Shown in pieces: positions 1,946 to 16,514 of a stretch of 35,422 nt of DNA. This stretch comes from Paludibacter sp. (lineage in GTDB: Bacteria > Bacteroidota > Bacteroidia > Bacteroidales > Paludibacteraceae). Within the stretch, counting starts at the first letter, position 1. Every line of letters starts with the position of its first letter. The notes under the pieces are model-generated. The model was not told the origin of the DNA, ran no database searches, and saw only the letters and a program-made list of their open reading frames with translations. Made by a program: the position numbers and the translations under genes. The DNA is taken from positions 1 through 35,422 of the forward strand of contig JAIFKX010000232.1 in assembly GCA_020049335.1 (NCBI GenBank). Direction: 5' to 3'.

Positions 1946-4900
1946 ATGAAAACTTTCATTACAATTTTACTTGCAAAATTGAGTAAGTTCAGTCATAAAT
2001 ACTTATTGGTAGCAATGAGCTTAATTACTACAACTTTGTTTTCGCAAAGTTTTAATTATCAAACCAATACAGGCACTTTAGGTCTTACCTACAGTTGGAT
2101 TGATTGTTCGGCTGGTACCGATATTATATCGGGTGACGATGATCAAGCAACAATTTCTTGGCCATTTAGTTTTCGGTTCTACAACAGCATTTACACAACC
2201 GCCAATAGCTTGAGCGTTGCAACCAATGGTTTTATTCGTTTAGATAACCTTGCTTCCACAAACTTTGCAACCGCACAGAGCTACACACTAGGTAGCGCGA
2301 GTACTGAACTTGGTCAAATTATAGCTTTGGGCGTGCAAGATGCCAATATTGGTAACGGTGGCGGCTGGGTGCGCTCTCTTACAACTGGAGTTAGTCCAAA
2401 TCGCATTTTTACAATCGAATATAACAATTTAGAAATATTCCCGAACGAAGAATTGTATGCTGACTTACAAGTTAGTTTTTACGAAACAACAAATAAAATA
2501 GTTCTTAAATTGGGAGCCACTTCTACTATAACGGAATCTGGAGCAGATATAGGTTTGCATAGCGGTGTTAGTAGTTATTTTAACAAATGGCAAGAAGTTG
2601 TTTCGGGAACAAAAAATGCTTGGATTGAATATTCATTACTACCCGTAGAAGTAAATGCAACAGGTGGAACTGCAGTAAATTTTTATAGTACAGTTAAAGG
2701 TGCTTTTGATGCTATAAACGCGGGTACACATACTGGAACACTAACAGTAAAATTGAGTGGAAATACTACTGAAACGGCTTCGGCTGTTTTAAATGCAAGT
2801 GGCACTGGATCAGCAGACTATTCGAGTTTAGTGATGTACCCTACGCAATCAGGCTTAACAGTGAGTGCTGCTATCAGTGGTAATTTAATTCAACTCAATG
2901 GTGCCGACAACGTAACTATAGATGGCCGCGTTAATCAAAGTGGTTCAGCTAATTTAACAATATCAAACACTTCAACCACTACAAATGCGCGAACAATAGA
3001 ATTAATTAACTCCGCCGAGTCAAATACCATCAATTTTTGTAATATCAAAGGAGCTGGTACTTCAAACACAAGAGGAACCATTACTATCGCAAATGCTTCG
3101 GCTGGAAATGGTAATGATGCCAACTACATACAATACAATAACTTGTCAGGTGTCTCGGCTACCGAGCGTCCATTAAATCTCATTTATTCTGCTGGTGCTA
3201 CCGGATATGTAAACGATCAAAATACAATTAGAAACAATAATTTTATTGATTTTCTATTATTAGGAACGGCTTCGAATGGCATTCATGTGTCTTCGTTTTC
3301 TAATGGATACACTATTACTGGAAATAGTTTCTATCAAACAGCTTCATTTGTTCCAACTGCTTCAGTTGAGCATACGGCTATTCGAATAAATAATACCTCT
3401 GCTACCAATTTTACTATTTCAGGAAATTTTATTGGTGGTAATGCTGCCAATGCAGCGGGTACTTGGAGTAAAACTAACGCATTTAACAATACCTTTAATG
3501 CTATTTATTTGAACATTGGAAATTCGGGCAACAGCGTTCAAAATAATACTATTAAAGGTTTTAGCTATGCCAATTCAGGAGCAGCTAATTGGTTTGGTAT
3601 TTACCTTGCTGGTGGAGCTGCCAGTATCGGAACTGCTATTGCTAACAACATTGGTGAAACAACTGGAACTGGTTCAATAACATTTACAGGTGGTGCTAAC
3701 AACGCCTCTTTATATGGTATTTACATAGCTACAACACAAAACATAACAATAGCCAACAATAATATTGGTAGTATTACAGCAGCAAACAGCATTTCTACAA
3801 ATGCAACCAATTTTTACGGCATACACAAAACAGCTACTGCGGGTGCGCTTACAATCTCCAACAACATAATCGGAAGTACAGTTACAGCAAGTAGTATTCA
3901 ATCTACTTCGGATGCCACAGGTAATTCTCAATTAGTATACGGAATTTATAACTTGGGTAACGGTGAAATTATCATTTCGGGAAATACGATTGCTAACTTA
4001 AACAATAAAACAACAGAAACAAATCGTTCTTCTCGTATTCGCGGCATTTTCTCGAATGCTGGAGCAAATACTATTGAAAGCAATACGGTATATAAAATAG
4101 AAACAACTGGTTTATCAAATGGAGCTAACTACACAAACGCTGCTATTGTTGGAATTTCGGTGATAAGTAAAACCGCAGGTAATGCTCAAACGATAACCAA
4201 AAATAAGGTTTACAATATTGAAACGACTGCTACCGGCAAAATTGAGTTATATGGCATTTATTTCGATGGACCAGATGCTATAGATGCTGTAATTTCGAAA
4301 AATTTCGTGCATACATTTGTAGTTCCTGGCTATCTTACAGGTTCAACGGGTTCGTATTTGCATGGAATATCATTGTACGATGGCGGTTTTACTGCTTCCA
4401 ACAACATTGTTTATTTAGGAAGCAATATAAACACTGGTTGTTCTATATGGGGAATGTGGACAAATACGAATGATAATGCAAAACTTTATCACAATACAAT
4501 TTACCTTTCGGGCGTTGCTCAGACTGGCACTTCTAATTCTTATGCATTCCGCTCGTTAAATTGTCCAACTACACTCGACGTTCGTAATAATATCTTATGG
4601 GATGGTCGCACCAATTTATCTGGGACAATTTCGCATTATGCTGTATATCTGAATTGTACAACTAATGTTACTATGAATTATAACGATTTTCAGTTTGCTC
4701 AACAATTTGGAATTGCCGGTGGAACAACCTATAATAATTTTGCAACTTGGAAATCAGGAACTGGATTCGATGCAAATAGTTTAGATGTAGATCCTCAATT
4801 GGTAAATTTAGGAGGTACATTGCCAATAGATTATCAAACCAGAGTGCAACTTACGGGAACTACATTAGCTGCAATACCTTCCGACTACGAAGATGTTACG

Positions 4901-7900
4901 CGTGTAACTCCAACTATGGGTGCTTGGGAGTTCTTTTCTAATCCAGTGGAGATTTGGTATAGTACAGTATATCAAAATGCCTACCCCACTCTAAAGGGAG
5001 CTTTCGATGTGATTAATGCTGGTACTTACACGGGCGATATGATCATAAAATTCCGTGGAAATACCACCGAAACTGCATCGGCAGTGCTCAATGCAAGTGG
5101 AGTTGGTGCAGCAAGTTATTCGCGCATTCTTGTTTATCCTACCCGAAGTGGTATAACCGTTACTGGAAATTTAGCTGCACCGTTAGTTGATTTGAATGGT
5201 GCCGATAATGTAACATTCGATGGTCGGGTAAATGGAAGTGGTGCTGCTTATGAATTTACGTTTACCAATACTAATTTATCCACCACTGCTGGCACTTCTA
5301 CTTTCAGGTTGCGCGAAGCAGCTGTTGGCGATACAATCAGATATTGTACTATCAAAGGTGGGGCTACTGGTGCATCTACAGCTCTGGTCCTTTTGCACGA
5401 ATCAACTGCTGGCAGTGGTAACAACAATAATGTTATTACACTAAACAAAATTACGTCACTTTCAGATGCCAATCGTCCTTTAAATGCATTATTATCAATT
5501 GGTTCCGTTGGTTTTCCAAACACAGGAAACAAAATATCCTCGAACGAATTTTTCGATTTCTTCCGCAAAGAAAGCAGTTCGAATGGAGTTAATATTCAAC
5601 CATATAGCTCAGCTACAAATATTTCTGGTAATAGTTTTTACGAAACAACTTCGTTTGCACCTACAACCGCTGCTACTTACAAAGTGATTACGGTCGAAGA
5701 TGTCAACAGCAACGATAATGTAATTTCGAATAATTATATTGGTGGAAATGCTGCTGGTGCTACGGGTACTTGGACAAAAACGAATAGTAATAACAATATC
5801 TTTCAGGCTATTAATATAACTGCTGGTACTTCTACTGCAAGTAATATTGATAATAATACAATTAGAAGTTTCAGTTATGCAAATTCGGCTAATGCATTTT
5901 GGACTGGCATTCAAGTAGCTTCTGGGGCTGTTAATGTAGGTAAAACTACTGGAAATACAATTGGAGCTGCAACTGGTACTGGTTCGATAACAGTTACAAA
6001 TGCCACAAATGCCGGTTTTGTGTATGGTATTAATATCTCAAGTGGCGGCACTGTTAATTGTGAGAACAATATTGTTGCTTCAATTACAGCAGCTAATAGT
6101 TCGGCTTCGAATGCTACAAACTTGGTGGCTATTAACAAATCGGCTTCAGCTGGTGCTACTTCAATTAGCAAAAACACAATTGGAAGCACTTCTGCTGCTA
6201 ATAGTGTACAAGCAACTTCAGGGTCAACCGGCAATGCGCAAACTGTTTATGGTATTAATTCGGCAGGAACAGGAGCTATCACTTTAAATGAAAACACAAT
6301 AGCAAATTTAAAAAATGCGACTACAAATACAACGGCAGGAACGCGTGGCCGAATTAATGGTATTTTAATTTCGGCTGGTACTGCAAATACGGTAACTAAT
6401 AATATACTTCGCGATTTATCAAGTGCTAATGCCAATACCGCAGCTACTTTCGAAATGCCTGTTGTTGGTATTAATTTAATAAATAGCATTCCCAACCGAA
6501 CAGTTACAAACAATACTATCTACAATTTAAGCAATACCTACGCAAGTTTTGCTGGCTCTATTTCTGGTATTTATTATCAAGGTGCTACTTCGGGTACAAA
6601 TACAGTTGACCGAAATTTTGTACACAGTCTTTCCACTACCAATGCAGCTGCCTCCTTAATTGGTATAGGTGCTGGTTCGGGCGTAACTACTTATTCTAAT
6701 AATATTATTTCAATTGGTAATGCTACGAATAATATTGTTTATGGCTTTTATGATGTGAATGGAACTTCTCAGGCAACTTATTTGTACTTCAATACAATTT
6801 ATATTGGTGGTGCAACTGCTGGAAACAACTCATCGTATGCTATGTTCTCGGGTAACGAAACTGGAATACGTAACTACCGAAACAATATATTCTACAATGC
6901 TCGTTCGCGATCAACAGGCACTGGTACACATGCGGCAATGAATTATTCGATAGTTGGAACAACCAATCTTACTGTAAATTACAACGATTATTTAGCCACA
7001 GGTACAGGTGCGCTTTTATGTAACTATGCCGGCACTCCATATACTTCGTTGGCCGCTATTCAAAGTGGAATTGGGCAAGATGTAAATAGCTTAGAACAAG
7101 ATCCAACCTTTACTGGAGCCTTGGGTTCTACTACTGCTACCGATTATAAGGTGGGTGTAACGCTCACTGCCGAAACGGGTACTGGAATAGGAAATGATTA
7201 TGGTTTGTTTTCGCGACCAGCTTTAACACCAACGGTGGGAGCCTGGGAGCGTAATGTGAACAAATGGAAAGGTACTACTTCAACCGATTGGGGAACCGCT
7301 TCGAACTGGACAGGAAACTTAGTGCCAGCAACGGATGCTACTATCGAATTTGATCCAGTGCCTGTTAATCATTGTATCATGGATGTCGATCGTTCGGTAA
7401 TGAATATCATTAATGCTCAAAATACCTATCGCGTTGTTACTAACGGTAAAACACTCACCATTAAAGGCGAATTGCAGTTTACAAATGGCGCCCAAATAGA
7501 TGCTTCGGCTACTTCTTCGAAAGTGATTTTTGCTGGTTCGGTTGCTCAAATTATTCCTGCTACTTCATTCTTTAATAATTTAGTTTATAATTTGGAAGTA
7601 AACAATGCAAACAATGTTTCGTTGTACGGTACAATAAAATTAGTAAACACAATAAGTTCAACAGCTGGACGATTTGATGCTTATACTAACTTTGCAAACT
7701 TTATCTACAGTGGTTCTGCTGCTCAAACAATCGAAAATAATGTATTCTTAGATAATAAAGGATACAATATGACAGTGGATAATACTGTTGGTGTTAGTTT
7801 AAATACAGATTTTACTTTGAATAATAATCTTACAGTTAATTCGGGTAAAAAGCTCCAAATAAATACGACTCGTACAATGACTGTGCTTGGTACTGTTACC

Positions 7901-9331
7901 AATTCGGCTGGTGCATCGGGCATTCTAATCAAGGCAAGTTCAACGGCTGCAAACGGGTCGCTAATTTTCTTAAACAGTTATGGCAACCCTGTAAATGCTT
8001 CGGTCGAAATGTATTCGAAATCAACTTGGGATAGAACAAAACCATCTGGTAGTCAATATAACTGGCAATTCTTTGGTATTCCGTTGCGTTCGCTTCCTGT
8101 GTTACCTACTTTTTATGGTGGCTATGTGCGCGAAAAATTGGAATCGGGAACTACAACTGCAAATCACTGGCTTCAATTAAATAACTCGTCAACGGTAATG
8201 CCATTTTATGGATACGAATTGTGTTTCCAAACACCACGGACAATTACTTTTGCGGGCGAATTGGTAAATAGTAACTTTAGTTCAGGCATGTTGCCTAAAA
8301 CGGTTGGCGCCATTTACCCCGGACAAATCTTATTTGCAAATCCTTACACTGCTGCTATCGACATTCGTCAAATTGAATTTGGAAGTGATATGGAAGCTAC
8401 TGTTTATCTCTATAATACGGGTACATATAATGCTTGGTTTTCAAGTCCTACAAAAATTGGGGATATTCCGGGTAGCTATATTTCTATCCCAAAAAACTTA
8501 GCAGGTTATGCTGGTATTCCTCGTCAAGTTCCGTCGATGAGCTCTATGATGATAAAAGTGATTAATTCCACTTCCAATGCCTATGTTAATATGAATTATA
8601 GCTCGGTGGTTATGGGAAATACCGATTTGCAACGTGCACCTGGAGTAAAGAAAGCCAAAGTAAGCGAAAAAGATGTTGTTTCAACTATAATATCAGTAAA
8701 CGGAGTTACTGCGGGTGATAAAGTCTGGCTCTTTAGTTCCGATGAATATACGCGTACATTTGATAATGGCTTTGATGGTATTAAAATGTATCCTCCAACT
8801 GGAAGGGCTCGTTTGTTTGCCTCCGAAGCTGACAACGATTACCAAATTAATGCTGTTGATAATTTTGACAACACAGCATTAAAGTTCCGCGCTGCTACGG
8901 GAGAAACAAATTATACGCTTACTTTCAATCACAAAAATACCGAGAAAAAATATGCTAGTATCTATTTGTATGATATGATCGACGATGTAACGACTGATAT
9001 TACATTAACTGGTTCTACCTACTCGTTTACTGCATCAAATACAACATCCAGCGTTTTACGCTTCCGCATTATTACAAATCCAATTAATGTAGATGGTGTT
9101 TCAACTGCAACCGATGAGCATATATATGCTGCTGATAATAACCTGTTTATTAACCTCTCGAAAGAAGTAGGCGCTACTGTTAAACTGACTGACATTACAG
9201 GTAAGTTAGTGGCTTCAACAAAAATAGGTGCAAATGGGATGGTCGTATTACCTCTCGATAAACAAAAAGTGTATATCGTAACTGTTATCTCAAAAGAAGG
9301 TACTTATTCTAAAAAAATCATGTCAAAATAG
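1946..9331 (+). CDS. Giant T9SS-exported protein with two tandem beta-helix modules
   Basis: A 2461-residue secreted protein. Residues 1-34 form a signal peptide ending LFSQ. Residues ~37-230 resemble the N-terminal beta-sandwich of Bacteroidota surface proteins (ATNGFIRLDN). Two long modules follow, about residues 233-995 and 1003-1768, each starting with a GAFD.INAGT / GNTTETASAVLNASG block and ending GAWE. Both are rich in Asn ladders typical of right-handed parallel beta-helices. A DWGTASNWTGN segment and beta-rich regions follow. The last ~75 residues are a type A T9SS sorting domain (LTDITGKLV...KVYIVTVISKEGTYSKKIMSK). The protein should be exported through the outer membrane and either anchored or released. 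Adhesion or polysaccharide binding is possible; no catalytic motif was recognised. Confidence 0.85.
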   Translation: MKTFITILLAKLSKFSHKYLLVAMSLITTTLFSQSFNYQTNTGTLGLTYSWIDCSAGTDIISGDDDQATISWPFSFRFYNSIYTTANSLSVATNGFIRLDNLASTNFATAQSYTLGSASTELGQIIALGVQDANIGNGGGWVRSLTTGVSPNRIFTIEYNNLEIFPNEELYADLQVSFYETTNKIVLKLGATSTITESGADIGLHSGVSSYFNKWQEVVSGTKNAWIEYSLLPVEVNATGGTAVNFYSTVKGAFDAINAGTHTGTLTVKLSGNTTETASAVLNASGTGSADYSSLVMYPTQSGLTVSAAISGNLIQLNGADNVTIDGRVNQSGSANLTISNTSTTTNARTIELINSAESNTINFCNIKGAGTSNTRGTITIANASAGNGNDANYIQYNNLSGVSATERPLNLIYSAGATGYVNDQNTIRNNNFIDFLLLGTASNGIHVSSFSNGYTITGNSFYQTASFVPTASVEHTAIRINNTSATNFTISGNFIGGNAANAAGTWSKTNAFNNTFNAIYLNIGNSGNSVQNNTIKGFSYANSGAANWFGIYLAGGAASIGTAIANNIGETTGTGSITFTGGANNASLYGIYIATTQNITIANNNIGSITAANSISTNATNFYGIHKTATAGALTISNNIIGSTVTASSIQSTSDATGNSQLVYGIYNLGNGEIIISGNTIANLNNKTTETNRSSRIRGIFSNAGANTIESNTVYKIETTGLSNGANYTNAAIVGISVISKTAGNAQTITKNKVYNIETTATGKIELYGIYFDGPDAIDAVISKNFVHTFVVPGYLTGSTGSYLHGISLYDGGFTASNNIVYLGSNINTGCSIWGMWTNTNDNAKLYHNTIYLSGVAQTGTSNSYAFRSLNCPTTLDVRNNILWDGRTNLSGTISHYAVYLNCTTNVTMNYNDFQFAQQFGIAGGTTYNNFATWKSGTGFDANSLDVDPQLVNLGGTLPIDYQTRVQLTGTTLAAIPSDYEDVTRVTPTMGAWEFFSNPVEIWYSTVYQNAYPTLKGAFDVINAGTYTGDMIIKFRGNTTETASAVLNASGVGAASYSRILVYPTRSGITVTGNLAAPLVDLNGADNVTFDGRVNGSGAAYEFTFTNTNLSTTAGTSTFRLREAAVGDTIRYCTIKGGATGASTALVLLHESTAGSGNNNNVITLNKITSLSDANRPLNALLSIGSVGFPNTGNKISSNEFFDFFRKESSSNGVNIQPYSSATNISGNSFYETTSFAPTTAATYKVITVEDVNSNDNVISNNYIGGNAAGATGTWTKTNSNNNIFQAINITAGTSTASNIDNNTIRSFSYANSANAFWTGIQVASGAVNVGKTTGNTIGAATGTGSITVTNATNAGFVYGINISSGGTVNCENNIVASITAANSSASNATNLVAINKSASAGATSISKNTIGSTSAANSVQATSGSTGNAQTVYGINSAGTGAITLNENTIANLKNATTNTTAGTRGRINGILISAGTANTVTNNILRDLSSANANTAATFEMPVVGINLINSIPNRTVTNNTIYNLSNTYASFAGSISGIYYQGATSGTNTVDRNFVHSLSTTNAAASLIGIGAGSGVTTYSNNIISIGNATNNIVYGFYDVNGTSQATYLYFNTIYIGGATAGNNSSYAMFSGNETGIRNYRNNIFYNARSRSTGTGTHAAMNYSIVGTTNLTVNYNDYLATGTGALLCNYAGTPYTSLAAIQSGIGQDVNSLEQDPTFTGALGSTTATDYKVGVTLTAETGTGIGNDYGLFSRPALTPTVGAWERNVNKWKGTTSTDWGTASNWTGNLVPATDATIEFDPVPVNHCIMDVDRSVMNIINAQNTYRVVTNGKTLTIKGELQFTNGAQIDASATSSKVIFAGSVAQIIPATSFFNNLVYNLEVNNANNVSLYGTIKLVNTISSTAGRFDAYTNFANFIYSGSAAQTIENNVFLDNKGYNMTVDNTVGVSLNTDFTLNNNLTVNSGKKLQINTTRTMTVLGTVTNSAGASGILIKASSTAANGSLIFLNSYGNPVNASVEMYSKSTWDRTKPSGSQYNWQFFGIPLRSLPVLPTFYGGYVREKLESGTTTANHWLQLNNSSTVMPFYGYELCFQTPRTITFAGELVNSNFSSGMLPKTVGAIYPGQILFANPYTAAIDIRQIEFGSDMEATVYLYNTGTYNAWFSSPTKIGDIPGSYISIPKNLAGYAGIPRQVPSMSSMMIKVINSTSNAYVNMNYSSVVMGNTDLQRAPGVKKAKVSEKDVVSTIISVNGVTAGDKVWLFSSDEYTRTFDNGFDGIKMYPPTGRARLFASEADNDYQINAVDNFDNTALKFRAATGETNYTLTFNHKNTEKKYASIYLYDMIDDVTTDITLTGSTYSFTASNTTSSVLRFRIITNPINVDGVSTATDEHIYAADNNLFINLSKEVGATVKLTDITGKLVASTKIGANGMVVLPLDKQKVYIVTVISKEGTYSKKIMSK

Positions 9332-9370
9332 AGTAAGGTTCGAAGTGCTAAGTTCTGAATTTTTAGTATC

Positions 9371-9414
9371 AAAAAAAACGGTGAAGTCAATAATTGACTT
9401 CACCGTTTTTTTTT
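9371..9414. terminator. Bidirectional terminator between convergent genes
   Basis: CGGTGAAGTCAA and TTGACTTCACCG pair perfectly around a 3-nt loop, flanked by A8 on the left and T9 on the right. It can therefore stop transcription from both the giant gene (+) and the sufT-like gene (-). Confidence 0.9.
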
Positions 9415-9498
9415 CGCATCTCGAAAATTGGGTTAAATAATAAACAAAACTATACACGAGTCTTTATTCTCTAATCTTTGTTCTTTAATCTATCTGTT

Positions 9499-9819
9499 TT
9501 ACAAAAATCCCAATTCCAATTTTGCCTCTTCACTCATCATTTCTTTGTCCCAAGCAGGTTCGTAAACAATATTTACTACTACATTTGTGATGCCTTCTAC
9601 ACTACCCGCTTTCATTTTCACATCTTCAACTATAAAATCAACTGCAGGGCAGCTTGGAGCTGTAAGCGTCATGTCAATATTCAAAACCCCATTTTCCTCT
9701 ACATCAATCTTGTATATTAATCCTAAATCGTAAATGTTTACAGGTATTTCAGGGTCGTATACAGTGCGAAGCATGCGCACAATTTTTTCTTCAATTTCTA
9801 AAAATTCGTTCATATTCAA
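9499..9819 (-). CDS. sufT: SufT-like Fe-S cluster assembly factor (DUF59/MIP18 family)
   Basis: A 106-residue single-domain DUF59 protein. The family acts in maturation of Fe-S proteins. Hallmarks visible are YDPEIPVNIYDLGLIY at residues 21-36 and the TAPSCPA motif with Cys57, the conserved reactive or metal-binding cysteine. The length is normal for standalone SufT/PaaD-like proteins. No suf genes are adjacent, so involvement in SUF assembly rests on family alone. It lies 79 bp downstream of the thioesterase gene on the same strand and may be cotranscribed. A PaaD-type role is less likely because no phenylacetate genes are present. Confidence 0.8.
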   Translation of the reverse strand: MNMNEFLEIEEKIVRMLRTVYDPEIPVNIYDLGLIYKIDVEENGVLNIDMTLTAPSCPAVDFIVEDVKMKAGSVEGITNVVVNIVYEPAWDKEMMSEEAKLELGFL

Positions 9820-10320: not shown

Positions 10321-10352
10321 CAAAAGTAATTCATATTGCCTAATCTCACAAA
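10321..10352 (-). promoter_or_regulatory. Bacteroidota-type promoter of the thioesterase gene
   Basis: On the minus strand TTTG (10352-10349) and TACTTTTG (10328-10321) are separated by 20 bp, matching the Bacteroidota -33/-7 promoter pattern TTTG-N~19-TAnnTTTG. The start codon lies 24 bp beyond the -7 box. Confidence 0.6.
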
Positions 10353-10403
10353 AACTTTTTATCAATACAAAATTTCTCGTTTAATAATAATCGAAAAAAA
10401 AAT

Positions 10404-10492
10404 CAATTGTCACACACACTTGAAAAAACTCATTCTCAAATCATTATTAGCTGATTTTATTTCAGTTGAAAGTTTTGTTATTGTTAATTTTG
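10404..10492 (+). pseudogene. Broken 5' copy of the DUF4153 gene
   Basis: Positions 10404-10460 match 14782-14836, the leader and first codons of the intact DUF4153 gene, at about 52 of 57 positions with one 2-nt indel and a final run of 25 identical bases. The translated start reads LKKLILKSLLADFISV against MKKLNFKSLLADFIAV. The ATG has become TTG. Weak similarity continues to about 10492 and then stops beside a 23-bp tandem repeat. Upstream, AAAACTTTTTATC is also shared, but the -7 box is lost here. I read this as a dead fragment left by duplication or insertion; a 63-codon ORF across it is probably not functional. Confidence 0.75.
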
Positions 10493-10500
10493 AACAAACA

Positions 10501-10551
10501 GTGAACGGATATCACCGGGAAACGTGAACGGGTATCACCGGAATATGTACA
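10501..10551. repeat. Tandem 23-bp imperfect repeat, possible IS end remnant
   Basis: Two head-to-tail copies (10501-10523 and 10524-10546) share GTGAACGGrTATCACCGG, followed by TGTACA. Short multiple terminal repeats of this kind occur at ends of IS21-family elements. No transposase gene and no second end were found in the window, so identity as an IS remnant is tentative. It sits exactly where similarity to DUF4153 ends. Confidence 0.4.
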
Positions 10552-10580
10552 TAAGATGTTATGGGGGTAGATGCTTGTTT

Positions 10581-11714
10581 CTATTTTGTTGTTGATATTT
10601 TCGGAATCCGTAAATTCTTCGGGCTTACAATCAGATAATTGGTTTTTTTTCCAGTGTCTTCCGATTTCAAAATTTTCTTTTCAACCAAGTCCTGTAAATC
10701 ACGCAAAGCTGTATCAGTTGAACAATCAGCCAATTTTGCGTAGGTTGAAGTTCGTAAAAATCCAACCTCCTTATCGTAATTGTCGTATAAATAATTAATT
10801 GTTTTTCGTTGTCTCTCGTTAATAGTGGTGAATTTATGTATTTCCCAGAAGTGTGATTTGTCAAGTATAATCTCCAAATTCTTTTCACTTGCGAGTAACG
10901 CTCTCTCGAAACATTCTAAAAACCAAAGCAAATAAGTCGTAATGTCGCTTGTTCCTTTCTGCGTTTTTTCAATTATTTCATTGTAATGTTTATGTTCTTT
11001 GAAAATCTGATTAGACATACTGTAAAACCGAATTTTACTTCCTTCACTTCGAGCTAAAAACATATCCATAATTGCTCGGGCAAGTCGTCCATTGCCGTCA
11101 TCGAAGGGGTGAATGGTAACAAACCAAAAATGCGAAATAGCTGATTTCAAAACTAAATCCATCTGATTCTTCTCATTCAGCCAATTCAGAAATATAGCCA
11201 TTTCCAATGGAACTCTTTTGGGAGTAGGAGCTTCAAAATGCACTTTTTCTCGTCCAAACGCTCCAGAAACGACTTTCATTCCACCCAATCGAAAACGTCC
11301 AATATCAATTTTTATATTTCCACTGTAGCCTGACTGAAATAGTGAGTTGTGCCAACCAAAAAGTCGTTTGTCAGTCAGTGTTTTATCATAATTTTGAGTT
11401 GCATCCAATAGAACATCAACAATGCCTTCAATATTTCGTGGTGTAGCTGCAAACTCAGCTCCCTCAATACCTAATTTTTGAGCAATGGACGAGCGAACAA
11501 GTTCAGGATTAAGAAATTCACCTTCGATTTTAGACGTGTCAATAACGTCCAAAATTAGAGATTCCAATGTTGCGCGCTCGATTAAGTCGAAACCCAATCT
11601 TTCCATACGTCCGAGCAATCTACCTTGTAAATGTCTTACAGAGGCTAATATTGGTAAAATCTTTTCATTATCCCAAACAAAATTGTACCAGTTTTCTCTT
11701 TCGTGTATATACAT
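10581..11714 (-). CDS. Fic family protein with DUF4172 N-terminus and autoinhibitory motif
   Basis: A 377-residue Fic protein. Fic enzymes usually transfer AMP from ATP to hydroxyl side chains of target proteins. The catalytic loop HPFDDGNGR is intact at residues 202-210, with the flap near EAPTPKRVP (161-169). The N-terminus (YIHERENW..., LQGRLLGRMERLGF) matches DUF4172. SKIEGE at 61-66 fits the (S/T)xxxEG inhibitory helix of class II Fic proteins, so no separate antitoxin is expected. The last ~80 residues look like a winged helix (STYAKLADCSTDTALRDLQDL), suggesting DNA binding. Iterated TTTTTCAC(C/T)GCA boxes lie directly upstream. The gene is in an accessory block beside RloAB; its target is unknown. 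Confidence 0.87.
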   Translation of the reverse strand: MYIHERENWYNFVWDNEKILPILASVRHLQGRLLGRMERLGFDLIERATLESLILDVIDTSKIEGEFLNPELVRSSIAQKLGIEGAEFAATPRNIEGIVDVLLDATQNYDKTLTDKRLFGWHNSLFQSGYSGNIKIDIGRFRLGGMKVVSGAFGREKVHFEAPTPKRVPLEMAIFLNWLNEKNQMDLVLKSAISHFWFVTIHPFDDGNGRLARAIMDMFLARSEGSKIRFYSMSNQIFKEHKHYNEIIEKTQKGTSDITTYLLWFLECFERALLASEKNLEIILDKSHFWEIHKFTTINERQRKTINYLYDNYDKEVGFLRTSTYAKLADCSTDTALRDLQDLVEKKILKSEDTGKKTNYLIVSPKNLRIPKISTTK

Positions 11715-11719
11715 AATTA

Positions 11720-11767
11720 TTTTTCACTGCATAATTTGCGGTAAAAATAGCGTTTTTTCACCGCAAA
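11720..11767 (-). promoter_or_regulatory. Iterated boxes upstream of fic, candidate operator
   Basis: TTTTTCACTGCA (11720-11731) and TTTTTCACCGCA (11754-11765) are direct copies, with an inverted TGCGGTAAAAA (11737-11747) between them. All sit within ~55 bp of the fic start. Because the Fic protein ends in a winged-helix-like region, autoregulation is plausible, but it is an inference. Confidence 0.45.
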
Positions 11768-12086
11768 AGCAAATTTTCAATCTAAAAACTATAAAAAGTT
11801 TTTTCCTTTATTTATTTTTGCACTTTCGGCAGCTCGTCTTTTATTAATTATAGAACAAGTCGCACTACAATCTAAGTATTTTCCAAAATTAATAAAAAAT
11901 TAAATTCCAGATTGAGAGCAGTTCAAATTTCAATTAAAATTTTGCAATTGAAAATTGGAATTGAAAACCCCAAACTATATCAAATCAGTGCAACTAAATC
12001 ACAACATCCCGTCAAGAGCTCAGCTTGGCGGGGTGTTTTGCGTTCGGGGTGGTGCGTTTAAGTCCTATGATGTTAGCAGTAGGATT
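11768..12086. other. Spacer between fic and rloB with GC-rich hairpin element
   Basis: No convincing gene is present. The left part is AT-rich. Bases 12001-12070 contain 38 G/C of 70 by hand count, far above the neighbouring sequence. They hold a 12-bp imperfect stem at 12004-12035 (ACATCCCG-CAAG / CTTG-CGGGGTGT, one mismatch and one G-U pair). The spacer ends in the 15-bp inverted repeat next to the rloB stop. The hairpin is followed by TTT on the plus strand only, so it is a poor terminator for rloB. Confidence 0.5.
12071..12085 (-). repeat. Left copy of inverted repeat flanking rloAB
   Basis: TGTTAGCAGTAGGAT here is the reverse complement, with one mismatch in 15, of ATCTTACTGCTAACA at 14144-14158. 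It ends one base before the stop codon of rloB. Confidence 0.6.
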
Positions 12087-12731
12087 TTATTTTGTTCCTA
12101 TTATCTTTTTAATTTGCTCCGTGTTAAAGAACAATTGCATTTCGCTCATCCCTGAATCTGGATTATGAAAGTCAAACTTTTCTAATCTTTCTGCATTAGT
12201 AATTGCTTTTGATAATAGCGGTTTTAATCTTAAATAAATATCATTGTCTTGTTTTGTATAAAACACTTGTGATTTGTTATATTCAGGTAAATATTTCTTC
12301 AACTGTTTTGTAACTCCGTCACAAGTTTCATAATACTTAGAAGTTGTTTCAAAATGTAATAATATCCAGTACTCTAAACAAGGATTGTTAATTATAACTA
12401 CAACATTTTCAAAGCTATTATTAATTTCATCACAATACTCTTTAAATTCTAGAAGTGCAGTTTTCGTTCCTCTCTTTGCTTTAAGAGTCTCAATCTTTAT
12501 TACATCAAAATCAATTATCCAAAATACTTTGTCGTAATCTGCCGATAGCTCAACAACTTTCTTGAATTGATCATAATTTTTTTTCTTTTGTGGAATTTCT
12601 GGTTTTAAATCAACATTAATTGACTTTTCATTTCTTTTAAGCATGTGGATATACCAAAATTCACATTCGCCATCGACAACAAATGCAAATTTTTGTTTTC
12701 CTTTGGGTTGAATTGATTTAGTCTTCCTCAT
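12087..12731 (-). CDS. rloB: RloB-like TOPRIM-type protein
   Basis: A 214-residue RloB-family protein. The start FAFVVDGECEFWYIHMLKRNE has the TOPRIM-style acidic DGE (residues 20-22), followed by a DxD-like pair in WIIDFDV (Asp74, Asp76) and the family motif NNPCLEYWILLHFE (115-128). TOPRIM folds of this kind cut nucleic acid in OLD, Gabija and PARIS-type systems; nuclease activity here is inferred. The ATG overlaps the end of the ATPase gene by 14 bp, so the two are translationally coupled. Such ATPase-RloB pairs were first noted beside restriction-modification loci in Campylobacter. The serine codon TCG, frequent in neighbouring host genes, appears rare here, consistent with horizontal transfer (not counted). 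Confidence 0.8.
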   Translation of the reverse strand: MRKTKSIQPKGKQKFAFVVDGECEFWYIHMLKRNEKSINVDLKPEIPQKKKNYDQFKKVVELSADYDKVFWIIDFDVIKIETLKAKRGTKTALLEFKEYCDEINNSFENVVVIINNPCLEYWILLHFETTSKYYETCDGVTKQLKKYLPEYNKSQVFYTKQDNDIYLRLKPLLSKAITNAERLEKFDFHNPDSGMSEMQLFFNTEQIKKIIGTK

Positions 12732-14025
12732 TGGTAATATCTATAAAGTAATCACCTAGATTCGGAACCCCACCCAACTTTCCAATTTTATACGCATTAT
12801 ATACATTGCTTGTGTCTCTAATTACCGAACTATCAAAATCTGCAAGTGAATATAGCTCTGTCGCACATTCATCAGTCTTATCTGTAAACCAAATAACATC
12901 ATCCCTAAAGATATCTTTATTATTTAATATCTCTCTATTATGAGTGGTTGCGATAATTTGTGATCGTTTTGAGTTTACTAAAAATGAGAGTAAGAAATGA
13001 ACATATAGATCTGGATGTAAAGATGCTTCTAACTCGTCAATTGGAAATGCAATTGATTTTTTCAGCAAAAGACTTAAAATTCCAGCAAATCCATAATATC
13101 TTACAGTTCCTTGCGATTCAAGTTTTAGTGGAAGTGAATATTTATTATTCCCAACTGTATGCTCTAATTCTAGATTAACAGAAGTAATTTTACCTTTATT
13201 CTTTAATGCTTTAATTTTATCACCAGAATCTTTTATCTGCTTTTCAAGAAACTCGATTAATCCATCTGGGATATCTTCCTCTTCTTTTTGAATTACAATA
13301 TCAGATATATTGAAATCAGCCTTTTTTAATATGGTAACAACATCTTCTTTTTTAATTTCTTGCTTATCAATTATAGAAGTGACAAAACTATCTAATTCTG
13401 TTTTGGTATAAATCAATGGTCTAAGGTAATTTTTAAACCAATCAGTTACATCCTTAAGCTCTGTCATTTCTATATTTGTTTTGAGAAAACCTCCCAAAAC
13501 AGTATTGTTCCAAAGAGTATTTGATTCAAGCGTTTTTTCAAAAGTTTTACTCGTTTTAATTTTGCTTCCAAAAGAGATGCTCGAATATTGTTTTTCTAAA
13601 TCTGTTGTTCTTTTAAAAACGTTAGCTTTAGTTGGATTATAGTGATTCAATGTCTCATTCACTATTGCATTTTCATTAAATTCAACTTCATAATAATATC
13701 TCTTTTCTTTTTGTATGAAGTCAATAGATAGTATTGTATTTTCTTTAGAAGAAATTTTATCAAAAAGAAACGGTTTGAAATTTAGAGGTTCTGTTTTTTT
13801 TGCCTCTGGTTCTAAAACAATATCTCTTAAGAATTGGAGAGCCTTGAGAATTGTTGTTTTCCCAGATGCATTAGCACCGTAAATTAGCCCTAGTTTCAAT
13901 AATCTCAATCCATTCTCTTTAATTACGTAATAATCTTCTAAATGAATTGATTTGTCCGCTTCAAAAGAAAGTATTTGTTTGCTTTTTATTGACCCAAAAT
14001 TTTGGATACTAAAGTTTATAATCAT
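12718..14025 (-). CDS. rloA: RloA-like AAA/ABC ATPase (AAA_15 type)
   Basis: A 435-residue ATPase of the ABC/SMC-like AAA_15 group. Walker A is GANASGKTT (50-58), the signature-like segment is ESQGTVRYYGF (303-313), Walker B is FPIDELEASLHP (327-338), and the switch His lies in ATTHNREIL (359-367). The middle (~90-290) is divergent and lysine- and glutamate-rich, possibly a coiled arm. It precedes rloB with a 14-bp overlap, giving an ATPase-plus-TOPRIM pair with the organisation of PARIS (AriA-AriB) and split OLD systems, in which the ATPase senses phage and controls the nuclease. A TATATTTG promoter box lies at 14061-14054. The specific trigger is unknown, and assignment to RloA rather than another AAA_15 clade rests on the RloB partner. 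Confidence 0.82.
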   Translation of the reverse strand: MIINFSIQNFGSIKSKQILSFEADKSIHLEDYYVIKENGLRLLKLGLIYGANASGKTTILKALQFLRDIVLEPEAKKTEPLNFKPFLFDKISSKENTILSIDFIQKEKRYYYEVEFNENAIVNETLNHYNPTKANVFKRTTDLEKQYSSISFGSKIKTSKTFEKTLESNTLWNNTVLGGFLKTNIEMTELKDVTDWFKNYLRPLIYTKTELDSFVTSIIDKQEIKKEDVVTILKKADFNISDIVIQKEEEDIPDGLIEFLEKQIKDSGDKIKALKNKGKITSVNLELEHTVGNNKYSLPLKLESQGTVRYYGFAGILSLLLKKSIAFPIDELEASLHPDLYVHFLLSFLVNSKRSQIIATTHNREILNNKDIFRDDVIWFTDKTDECATELYSLADFDSSVIRDTSNVYNAYKIGKLGGVPNLGDYFIDITNEED

Positions 14026-14053
14026 TTTTGCATGTTTTTGTGTAATTATTCTG

Positions 14054-14061
14054 CAAATATA
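14054..14061 (-). promoter_or_regulatory. -7 box of rloA promoter
   Basis: The minus strand reads TATATTTG, an exact TAnnTTTG box, 29 bp upstream of the rloA start codon. No good -33 element was seen. Confidence 0.5.
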
Positions 14062-14143
14062 CGTACAATAATTGCAATTTATTCATTTTCGTGTCGAAAT
14101 TTGCACGTCAAATACAAAATTGCAGTATTTTTCTCATTTTTTA

Positions 14144-14158
14144 ATCTTACTGCTAACA
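14144..14158 (+). repeat. Right copy of inverted repeat flanking rloAB
   Basis: ATCTTACTGCTAACA matches the reverse complement of 12071-12085 at 14 of 15 positions. Both copies read CTGCTAACA outward from the rloAB pair. Confidence 0.6.
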
Positions 14159-14529
14159 CTTATATATGCTTAGTAAAATTTGGCTATACCCAGTTAACTG
14201 AACATACATCGCATTTATGCAGATGTTTTTATTTTGCTATACCATTGATATACAACGAATTGAAAATATTCCTTTGTTTTGGCTACTAACCATAGCCAAT
14301 TTGTTAATAAAATGGAATTTCGCTGGTTTTTCAATTTGAAACTCCAAAGATAATTACAATATTTTAGAAAAACACTAAGTCTTTTTATTTCATTTCTAAG
14401 TTGTCCAACGGAATTTTAATTTGAACTCCTCTCCTCTGTAATATCTCGACTGAGGAATATACCCCCCAAAAAAAAGTTTTTGCATATTTATAAAATCCTA
14501 TTGCATATTATTGCAATTTAATATTGGCT

Positions 14530-14562
14530 TATCCTGTATCTATCCTATATCTATCCTATATG
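14530..14562. repeat. Three tandem 11-bp repeats
   Basis: TATCCTGTATC, TATCCTATATC and TATCCTATATG lie head to tail with no spacer. Copy number may vary between strains. Confidence 0.75.
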
Positions 14563-14742
14563 CTTTGCATACCTATCTCGTTAGGGTATATTTATAAGAA
14601 TTTGTGTGTAAAAAACAAGGTAAACAACTTTACTATTACAAGTAATTCATGTTATTTTTTAAATAATACTGTTGCACTATGTTATAGATAATGTATTTTA
14701 CGAATAGGTGGATAGTAAAGGTGTTTTTTACCGAAAACTTTT

Positions 14743-14750
14743 TATCTTTG
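14743..14750 (+). promoter_or_regulatory. -7 box of DUF4153 promoter, fixes the start codon
   Basis: TATCTTTG is an exact TAnnTTTG box. It lies inside the ORF drawn from 14691, so that upstream start cannot be used and the ATG at 14796 is the probable start. The duplicated fragment at 10350-10362 has the same context but has lost TTTG. Confidence 0.6.
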
Positions 14751-14795
14751 CAAGAAGTCAAATTGAACAGAATTAAACAAACAATTATCACACAC

Positions 14796-16514
14796 ATGAA
14801 AAAACTCAATTTCAAATCATTATTAGCTGATTTTATAGCCGTTGTGCTTCGTTTTTATCTTGTATTAATTTCCGTTTTTGGACTTGCCATTATGTCGCTG
14901 CTCGAAATTAATGTAAAGCGTTTCGAACAGGATTTTAATGTTTGGAGCTTTTTTATTTTGGCTACAATAGCCTCATTCTCACTTACTTTGTTTTTGGAAA
15001 ATGCCAAAAACAAGCTACTCGGAATAGGGACACTCCTCCTTACTTTGTCATCTATTGCACTCTATTCTTTTTTCTATTTCAACAATAAGGTGGAATGGGA
15101 AATGATGCAATTTGCTGCTATTCTGTTTGCAACACTTTTGTCGATTACATTTGTACTCTATTTTCGGAAAAATAAAGATGCTTCATTTTGGATTTTTACT
15201 GAAAAAATTTCCCGCGAAATTATCACAACTCTCATTTACGTGTCGATTATTCAAGGTGGATTAAGTTTAGCCATTTATGCAGTTAATGTACTTTTTAATG
15301 TAAAAGTTGAGAGCGAAGTGTATGGTAGTTTGGCGGTTGTGTGTTATTTAATGGTGGCTCCCGTTTACTTTTTAATGAATTTGCCAACTAAAAGTCAATT
15401 ATACAATGATACGCCTGATTATGCAAAATTTCTTAAAATTCTTGGTTTAAATGTTTTGTTGCCTATCTTGGGATTGTATTTAGTGATACTTTATTTTTAC
15501 TTGATAAAAATTATTGTGATTTGGGAGCTGCCAAACGGCTGGGTAACAACATTGGTCTCCATTTTAGCATTGGGTGGTTATTTAGCAAAATTTCTACTTT
15601 TTCCGATTTCGGAAAATAGTGTTGTGCGCTTTCTTAATAGGTATTTTTCGGTTTTGTTGTTGCCCTTAATTGTATTAATGTCGGTAGGGCTGGCACGTCG
15701 CATCGACGATTATGGCATTTCTATTAACCGATTGTATGTGTTGGTTTTTAATATTTGGCTTTACGCTGTAAGCATTTACCTCTTTTTTACCCATTCGAAG
15801 CATTTACGATGGTTGGTTATTTCGTTTGCAGCAGTTTTGTTGCTCGTATCCGTAGGACCATGGAGTGTTTTTGCTACCACAAAGCGTGTTGTTGAGAAAG
15901 ATTTAACGACATTATTAATTGATAATAAGTTGTTTGTAAATAATCAGTTAGTAGAAAACAAATCGGATAAAATAGCAATCAAGGACAGTGTTAAAGCCGA
16001 AATTTCGGACAAAGTATATTATTACATTACTAATTTTGGGCTCGAAAGCTGGAAACTAACCTTTAATGATAAGCGTAAACTGGCGGGCGTTTTTCAGATT
16101 ACAGAATCTTTAGGCGTAAATAATTATACGCTTAACGAAAAAACACGATCGTTTTACACGTCAAATAGCTCTAAAGAAGTGTATGATATAAATGAGTACA
16201 AATACCTGATAACTAATCTTGAAATAAATGAAGATAGTAATTTGGTATTTTTGGATAAAAACTTTAAAATAGAATTTATTAAAAATAAGATTGAAATTAC
16301 TGATATGCTAAAAGCAAGCAAATTTTCATTTCCACTTCAGAAAATCGTATCTGAGCTATTTGTTTTGGATAATGAAAATGAGACGCTTAAAAACAAACTT
16401 TTAGTTCAAAAATCCAATACCTATATGTTGTTAATAAGCAATTTGTCGGTAGAATATAAGTCTTCAAGCGATTTCAAAATTACGCAAATGAGTTTTACAT
16501 TGTATTTGAAGTAG
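14796..16514 (+). CDS. DUF4153 multi-pass membrane protein
   Basis: A 572-residue protein from the ATG at 14796; the track start at 14691 precedes the promoter and is rejected. The first ~370 residues hold roughly ten hydrophobic segments. The rest is a soluble tail of about 200 residues with many charged residues (LLIDNKLFVNN, KIEITDMLKASKF). The N-terminal pattern KKLNFKSLLADFIAVVLRF resembles DUF4153 proteins of Bacteroidota. No biochemical function is known to me for the family. Its 5' end and promoter are duplicated as a dead fragment 4.38 kb upstream. It converges on the RRM gene across repeats and a shared terminator. Confidence 0.7.
   Translation: MKKLNFKSLLADFIAVVLRFYLVLISVFGLAIMSLLEINVKRFEQDFNVWSFFILATIASFSLTLFLENAKNKLLGIGTLLLTLSSIALYSFFYFNNKVEWEMMQFAAILFATLLSITFVLYFRKNKDASFWIFTEKISREIITTLIYVSIIQGGLSLAIYAVNVLFNVKVESEVYGSLAVVCYLMVAPVYFLMNLPTKSQLYNDTPDYAKFLKILGLNVLLPILGLYLVILYFYLIKIIVIWELPNGWVTTLVSILALGGYLAKFLLFPISENSVVRFLNRYFSVLLLPLIVLMSVGLARRIDDYGISINRLYVLVFNIWLYAVSIYLFFTHSKHLRWLVISFAAVLLLVSVGPWSVFATTKRVVEKDLTTLLIDNKLFVNNQLVENKSDKIAIKDSVKAEISDKVYYYITNFGLESWKLTFNDKRKLAGVFQITESLGVNNYTLNEKTRSFYTSNSSKEVYDINEYKYLITNLEINEDSNLVFLDKNFKIEFIKNKIEITDMLKASKFSFPLQKIVSELFVLDNENETLKNKLLVQKSNTYMLLISNLSVEYKSSSDFKITQMSFTLYLK

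What the first reader, a model, noticed from the sequence alone, without database searches (positions are those of the whole stretch)
10349..14836. Accessory block flanked by a broken and an intact copy of the DUF4153 promoter and 5' end
The first 57 bp around the start of the DUF4153 gene (14782-14836) recur at 10404-10460 in the same orientation, 4378 bp upstream, with 3 substitutions and one 2-nt indel, ending in 25 identical bases. AAAACTTTTTATC upstream is also shared. Between them lie fic, rloB and rloA. The left copy borders the thioesterase promoter, so thioesterase and DUF4153 probably were divergent neighbours before the block arrived. This could be an insertion with a duplicated target gene 5' end, as for elements that regenerate the gene they enter, or a decayed tandem paralogue.
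Basis: partly seen in the sequence, partly recalled or inferred. Interest (0 to 1): 0.72.

Follow-up and report, generated by a model that had tools for sequence, protein, structure and literature searches.

The report
Orphan integron-like platform beside duplicated gene start
The gene block between the two copies of a gene's start is a broken, second copy of an integron-like gene-capture platform (its integrase gene reduced to a tail) carrying probable anti-phage gene cassettes, while the duplicated gene start itself is only an old, decayed relic; related intact platforms in this Bacteroidales genus use an integrase that lacks the part thought to define integrons.

Summary
The DUF4153 promoter, leader and first ~16 codons recur beside the thioesterase; the match is longer than reported (10351-10468 vs 14735-14844; score 96, best of 1000 shuffles 36). 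The promoter half of the left copy is also in the closest relative (G004), so the duplication predates their split. In the window the left copy stops at the last ~62 bp of an IS21-family element and has lost its -7 box and ATG: a relic.

The repeats are not the ends of the block. On the minus strand it reads: integrase C-terminal remnant, promoter, attI-like site, rloA-rloB cassette, attC-like site, fic, IS21-interrupted attC. Relatives hold intact versions: a 520-608 aa tyrosine recombinase, an attI-like site 231-243 bp past its stop (227 in the window), then cassettes with complementary ends in chains of up to four. G004 carries a different cassette where the window has rloAB.

By architecture this is an integron, but the recombinase lacks ~43 residues where IntI has its defining domain and scores below the integron-integrase cut-off. 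Best call: an orphan platform of a non-canonical Bacteroidales integron. How DUF4153's 5' end was duplicated remains open.

The parts
10351..10468 (+). Left (broken) copy of the DUF4153 promoter, leader and first ~16 codons; -7 box lost, ATG changed to TTG
   Evidence: local alignment with 14735-14844, score 96 vs shuffle maximum 36; only one other strong match in the genome
14735..14844 (+). Right (intact) copy: promoter AAAACTTTTTATCTTTGC, leader and 5' end of DUF4153
14796..16514 (+). DUF4153 membrane protein gene, single copy in the genome
   Evidence: Pfam PF13687 2.6e-18; one match in own genome
9899..10297 (-). 4HBT-type thioesterase gene, left neighbour of the block
   Evidence: Pfam PF13279/PF03061
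10488..10549 (+). Terminal ~62 bp (3'-of-istB end) of an IS21-family element, body deleted; two 23-bp repeats GTGAACGG.TATCACCGG then GGAATATGTA
   Evidence: same end downstream of istB in relatives, whole istA-istB element in L088; no other copy in own assembly
10550..10567 (-). Remnant of the attC-like site of the fic gene (CCATAAC|ATCTTATG), cut by the IS21 end; longer but degenerate in G004
   Evidence: junction vs G004 ...TTTAAGA|CATAAGATGTTATGGG
10581..11714 (-). fic (DUF4172-Fic; PADLOC SoFic)
   Evidence: Pfam, PADLOC PDLC03963 1.4e-37; 97.3% identical to G004 against 91-93% for thioesterase, FeS and DUF4153 genes
11986..12075 (-). attC-like site (repeat E1) 3' of rloB, R''-like box CTGCTAAC
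   Evidence: repeat family in 9 of 48 genus genomes with a conserved edge at ...GATGTTA|; a gene points at nearly every site
12087..12731 (-). rloB (AbiLii-like), cassette gene 2
   Evidence: PF13707 8e-24; PADLOC AbiLii 7e-17
12718..14025 (-). rloA (AAA ATPase, AbiLi-like), cassette gene 1
   Evidence: PF13304 1e-32; PADLOC AbiLi 2.4e-73
12072..14157 (-). rloAB cassette: starts GTTAGCAGTAAGATT, ends AATCCTACTGCTAAC (14 of 15 complementary)
   Evidence: the same rule holds for cassettes next to intact platforms
14154..14225 (-). attI-like site (repeat E2) ...GCGATGTATGTTCAGTTAACTGGGTATAGCCAAATTTTACTAAGCATATATAAGT|GTTA
   Evidence: 13 of 48 genus genomes; lies 231-243 bp past the integrase stop in seven intact platforms
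14345..14352 (-). -7 box TATCTTTG of the presumed cassette promoter, 195 bp before GTTA (196-208 in six intact platforms)
14385..14423 (-). C-terminal remnant of the platform integrase, QIKIPLDNLEMK* (native: QIKSPLDNLEI*)
   Evidence: score 46, maximum 42 in 300 codon shuffles; stop-to-GTTA distance 227 fits the platform spacing

Best explanation
The block between the two DUF4153 5' copies is an orphan, integrase-less secondary platform of an integron-like gene-capture system native to this Bacteroidales genus. Platform order on the minus strand: integrase (only its last ~12 codons remain), promoter, attI-like site, cassettes. The rloA-rloB (AbiL-like) pair is a cassette at the attI-like site, followed by its attC-like site; fic is an older neighbour whose own attC-like site was hit by an IS21-family insertion. 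Cassettes would be exchanged by the single intact recombinase encoded elsewhere in the genome (contig C303), acting in trans; inferred, not shown. The repeated DUF4153 5' end is a separate, older event: a partial duplication of at least 118 bp that already existed in the ancestor shared with G004 and now flanks the platform. Its left copy is a relic, trimmed in this lineage by a deletion that also removed the IS21 body. Shown: repeat, IS21 end, platform parts at conserved spacing, cassette complementarity, different cassette in G004. Inferred: recombination activity, expression from the platform promoter, order of events. Not resolved: what caused the duplication (duplicative or single-crossover insertion, or a tandem copy lost except for its start).
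For: Stop-to-GTTA spacing is 231, 237, 235, 243, 237, 240 and 239 bp in seven intact platforms and 227 in the window; the -7 box lies 196-208 bp before GTTA in six of them and 195 in the window. The integrase tail scores 46 against a maximum of 42 in 300 shuffles; longer tails sit beside the same kind of attI-like site in G065:C233 and G002:C150. The rloAB cassette ends are complementary in 14 of 15 bases. Cassette chains beside intact platforms: 4 in G070, 3 in G017, 3 in G111 (another family), against shuffle maxima of 1-2; G024 and G143 give 2, no better than the shuffle maximum. attC-like sites are present in 9 of 48 genus genomes and genes consistently point at them. G004 holds DUF218 (SanA-like) plus membrane-protein genes where the window has rloAB. 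Duplication in G004: left vs right promoter part scores 46, maximum 35 in 1000 shuffles. IS21 end. The own genome has one intact integrase.
Against: The window's attC-like site folds poorly (z -1.2), unlike related copies (-6.9, -5.0, -2.3), so it may be inactive. No complementary start was found for fic. The integrase remnant is only ~12 residues; spacing carries much of the argument. Ten of 15 platforms scanned gave no chain, several on short contigs. No empty site was found. The genomes are mostly drafts and the own one is 83% complete, although G004 confirms the order thioesterase-fic-...-DUF4153.
Confidence: 0.75

Rival explanations
1. An integrative element inserted into the 5' end of DUF4153 and restored the gene; the two 5' copies are its attachment sites.
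For: Same-orientation partial and full copies flank accessory genes.
Against: No recombinase gene in the block beyond a ~12-residue tail; recognised recombination sites are internal; the right edge lies ~310 bp from the right copy; G004 keeps fic but lacks the coding part of the left copy.
Confidence: 0.1
2. Origin of the repeat, option 1: decayed tandem paralogue. A second DUF4153 gene stood beside the thioesterase, the platform entered next to it, and an IS21-associated deletion removed all but its start.
For: The left copy keeps promoter, leader and codons in order and ends abruptly at an IS21 terminus; the duplication predates the G004 split.
Against: No other DUF4153 sequence in the block of either genome; no genus member shows two full tandem copies; the 300 bp before the right copy does not resemble the DNA after DUF4153.
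Confidence: 0.35
3. Origin of the repeat, option 2: a molecule carrying the platform and a DUF4153 5' segment entered by one homologous crossover, leaving a short and a full copy.
For: A single crossover gives exactly thioesterase, short copy, cargo, 5' spacer, full gene; the 300-bp spacer before the right copy is conserved in G004.
Against: No donor with such a segment was found; the model was not tested beyond its geometry.
Confidence: 0.25
4. The flanking sites are ends of an IS91-like rolling-circle element (int plus Y2 transposase), not integron sites.
For: In G002:C150 and G008:C176 the E1 repeat lies downstream of a 303-aa recombinase and an IS91-family transposase.
Against: Most E1 sites have no transposase nearby; the attI-like site accompanies the 520-608 aa integrase at fixed spacing; complementary cassette ends and chains of 3-4 cassettes are an integron property.
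Confidence: 0.1

Closest known systems
Chromosomal integron (IntI-attI-attC cassette array)
   Same: Integrase gene beside a primary site; promoter; cassettes whose start and R'' box are complementary; hairpin attC-like sites; defence and restriction genes as cargo
   Different: Integrase lacks ~43 residues at the IntI-specific region, scores below the TIGR02249 cut-off and carries a ~290-aa N-terminal extension; attI lies 3' of the integrase gene
CALIN (cluster of attC sites lacking an integrase)
   Same: Cassette sites with no working integrase next to them
   Different: The window keeps the promoter, attI-like site and integrase tail, so it is a degraded platform rather than attC sites alone; only one clean cassette
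IS21 family (istA/istB)
   Same: Terminal repeats of the same sequence type as those past istB in relatives
   Different: Only the last ~62 bp remain; not mobile
AbiL (AbiLi/AbiLii; rloA/rloB) and SoFic
   Same: Best PADLOC matches of the cargo
   Different: Assigned by sequence only; activity untested

Membership tests
Integron | Tyrosine recombinase with the IntI-specific additional domain around patch III (stated as defining in PMC9668308) | tested here: not met
   Native integrase aligns to IntI4 (2a3v) in two blocks with ~18 residues where IntI4 has ~61; TIGR02249 215-218 bits, cut-off 265, with the first stretch ending near position 180 and the second starting near 239
Integron | attI site adjacent to the integrase gene | tested here: met
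   GTTA 231-243 bp past the stop in seven platforms, aligned with copies at other loci
Integron | Arrays of cassettes with complementary start and R'' box | tested here: met
   Chains of 4, 3 and 3 cassettes vs shuffle maxima 1-2 in relatives; one clean cassette in the window
Integron | attC folds into a hairpin as a single strand | tested here: inconclusive
   z -6.95 (G002:C150), -5.0 (G017), -2.3 (own C20), -1.2 (window)
Integron | attC x attI recombination by the integrase | not testable with these tools
   needs an assay
IS21 family | istA/istB and terminal multiple repeats | tested here: inconclusive
   Window holds only the right-end repeats; whole element with istA (554 aa) and istB (276 aa) ORFs in relative L088, named here from sequence features, not scanned against a family library
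Gene-regenerating integrative element | Own recombinase and att sites at the repeat borders | tested here: not met
   No recombinase gene in 10351-14735; sites are internal

The most novel reading that the evidence does not exclude
Bacteroidales carry a widespread second lineage of integrons whose Xer/XerA-like recombinase captures cassettes without the IntI-specific domain; secondary, integrase-less platforms scattered in their genomes hold exchangeable anti-phage cassettes. Integrase homologues occur in 64 of 151 genera of the order sampled (E at most 1e-50); for most of these an adjacent array was not examined.
Probability: 0.5. Interest if true: 0.85.

Novelty: new variant of a known kind. 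Interest (0 to 1): 0.62.

Why it matters
Integron surveys require the IntI-specific domain, and IntegronFinder 2.0 reports only one complete integron from Bacteroidetes proper (Salinibacter; PMC9024848). If the recombinase found here works without that domain, such surveys miss a whole group, and the idea that IntI became able to recombine single-stranded sites by gaining the I2 helix (abstract of PMC7790495) becomes testable on a natural system that lacks it. It also gives a mechanism for the turnover of defence genes at this locus.

Tried and rejected
Gene-regenerating insertion using the DUF4153 copies as att sites (the sites are internal). Longer left copy: nothing significant past 10468 and no DUF4153 remnant in the block. 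Simple tandem duplication: the spacer before the right copy does not match DNA after DUF4153. Empty site: none; other genus members have the two genes apart. Rfam: nothing above threshold. TIGR02249 search: all 48 genomes ring, none over cut-off, and the 14 control genomes ring too, so not diagnostic by itself. First idea that E1/E2 are ends of an IS91-like element: kept as a rival, outweighed by the array data. Integrase remnant in G004 at this locus: none found (score 22). No structure was predicted: the folding tool's stated sources do not include the whole-genome loci, so the integrase was not sent.

Full report
Observation. The left copy's only strong match in the genome is the right copy, and DUF4153 is single-copy. 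The left copy has lost the -7 box and reads TTG in place of ATG.

Age of the duplication. In the closest relative held (G004; its record is titled Porphyromonas cangingivalis MAG, a name that may be wrong) the order thioesterase-fic-other genes-DUF4153 is the same. G004 keeps the promoter half of the left copy (score 46, shuffle maximum 35) but not the coding half. Both G004 copies share AAGTCTCATT, so the duplication is probably older than the split, and the two lineages have since changed it differently. In other genus members thioesterase and DUF4153 are not neighbours, so their divergent pairing cannot be called ancestral.

What ends the left copy. Bases 10488-10549 are the terminus of an IS21-family element: the same repeats lie past istB in relatives, with a complete istA-istB element in L088. 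The outer junction falls within the attC-like site of fic, as comparison with G004 shows. A deletion from within the DUF4153 fragment to the IS end is the simplest reading.

What the block is. Downstream of rloB lies a ~90-bp repeat present in 9 of 48 genus genomes; its edge GATGTTA| is conserved, what follows is variable, and a gene points at nearly every site. In five cases, including rloAB, the bases after GTTA recur as the reverse complement at the far end of the cargo, next to a second conserved sequence. That second sequence occurs in 13 of 48 genomes, in several of them just past the stop of a 520-608 aa tyrosine recombinase. The stop-to-GTTA distance is 231-243 bp in seven platforms and 227 in the window, measured from the stop of QIKIPLDNLEMK, a remnant of the recombinase's end. 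The promoter box is equally placed. Arrays beside some intact platforms obey the cassette rule in chains of up to four. The window block is therefore read as a degraded secondary platform with one clean cassette (rloAB, AbiL-like) and fic (SoFic-like).

Membership. Arrays, attI and complementary ends fit an integron. The recombinase does not fit the usual definition: it resembles IntI4 (E 2.6e-39) but lacks the IntI-specific stretch, falls below the TIGR02249 cut-off and sits at the XerA/integron model's cut-off (219.8 and 223.6 against 220), with a ~290-aa N-terminal extension. So it works like an integron on present evidence but is not filed as a canonical one. Homologues occur in 64 of 151 genera sampled in the order. 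IntegronFinder 2.0 reports one complete integron in Bacteroidetes proper (PMC9024848); other surveys list Bacteroidota or Bacteroidetes/Chlorobi without detail (PMC8618304; PMC2426708). The held library is partial, so prior description cannot be excluded.

Mechanism. Most likely the recombinase encoded on C303 inserts and removes cassettes at this platform in trans, and the platform promoter drives rloAB; neither step was shown. The window's attC-like site folds weakly, so the locus may be frozen. The DUF4153 duplication is independent of this reaction; single-crossover entry and a lost tandem copy both remain possible.

Limits. Mostly draft genomes; no empty site; the integrase remnant is short; ten of 15 platforms showed no chain, some because contigs end soon after the integrase.

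Noticed in passing
L134 (G002:C150) 7606-9713; L135 (G008:C176) 2847-4954: A 303-aa integron/Xer-like recombinase directly followed by an IS91-family Y2 transposase, with the attC-like repeat shortly downstream in both; possibly an IS91-like element that uses or carries the site.
   Followed up: partly
L032 (G004:C2:42000-60000) about 12884-13179: About 300 bp inserted between promoter and start codon of DUF4153 in G004, with CCCGATAGCTATCGGGA-type inverted repeats; MITE-like.
   Followed up: no
window 9371-9413: Perfect 21-bp inverted repeat with one base between the arms after the 2461-aa gene (1946-9331); probably a bidirectional terminator.
   Followed up: no
L198, L200, L203 (G163:C98, G136:C26, G100:C17): Contigs end about 160-260 bp past the integrase stop, where the array should begin; repeats probably break assemblies, so arrays are under-represented in drafts.
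   Followed up: partly
L059 (G025:C8) 4726-4977: Lone sequence matching only the last 85 residues of DUF4153 at 68-69% identity, near a contig end.
   Followed up: no
L136 (G004:C58) 11177-13569: Cassette with a complete-looking restriction-modification pair (C5 methylase plus BanI-type enzyme) between the same attC-like and attI-like sites.
   Followed up: partly
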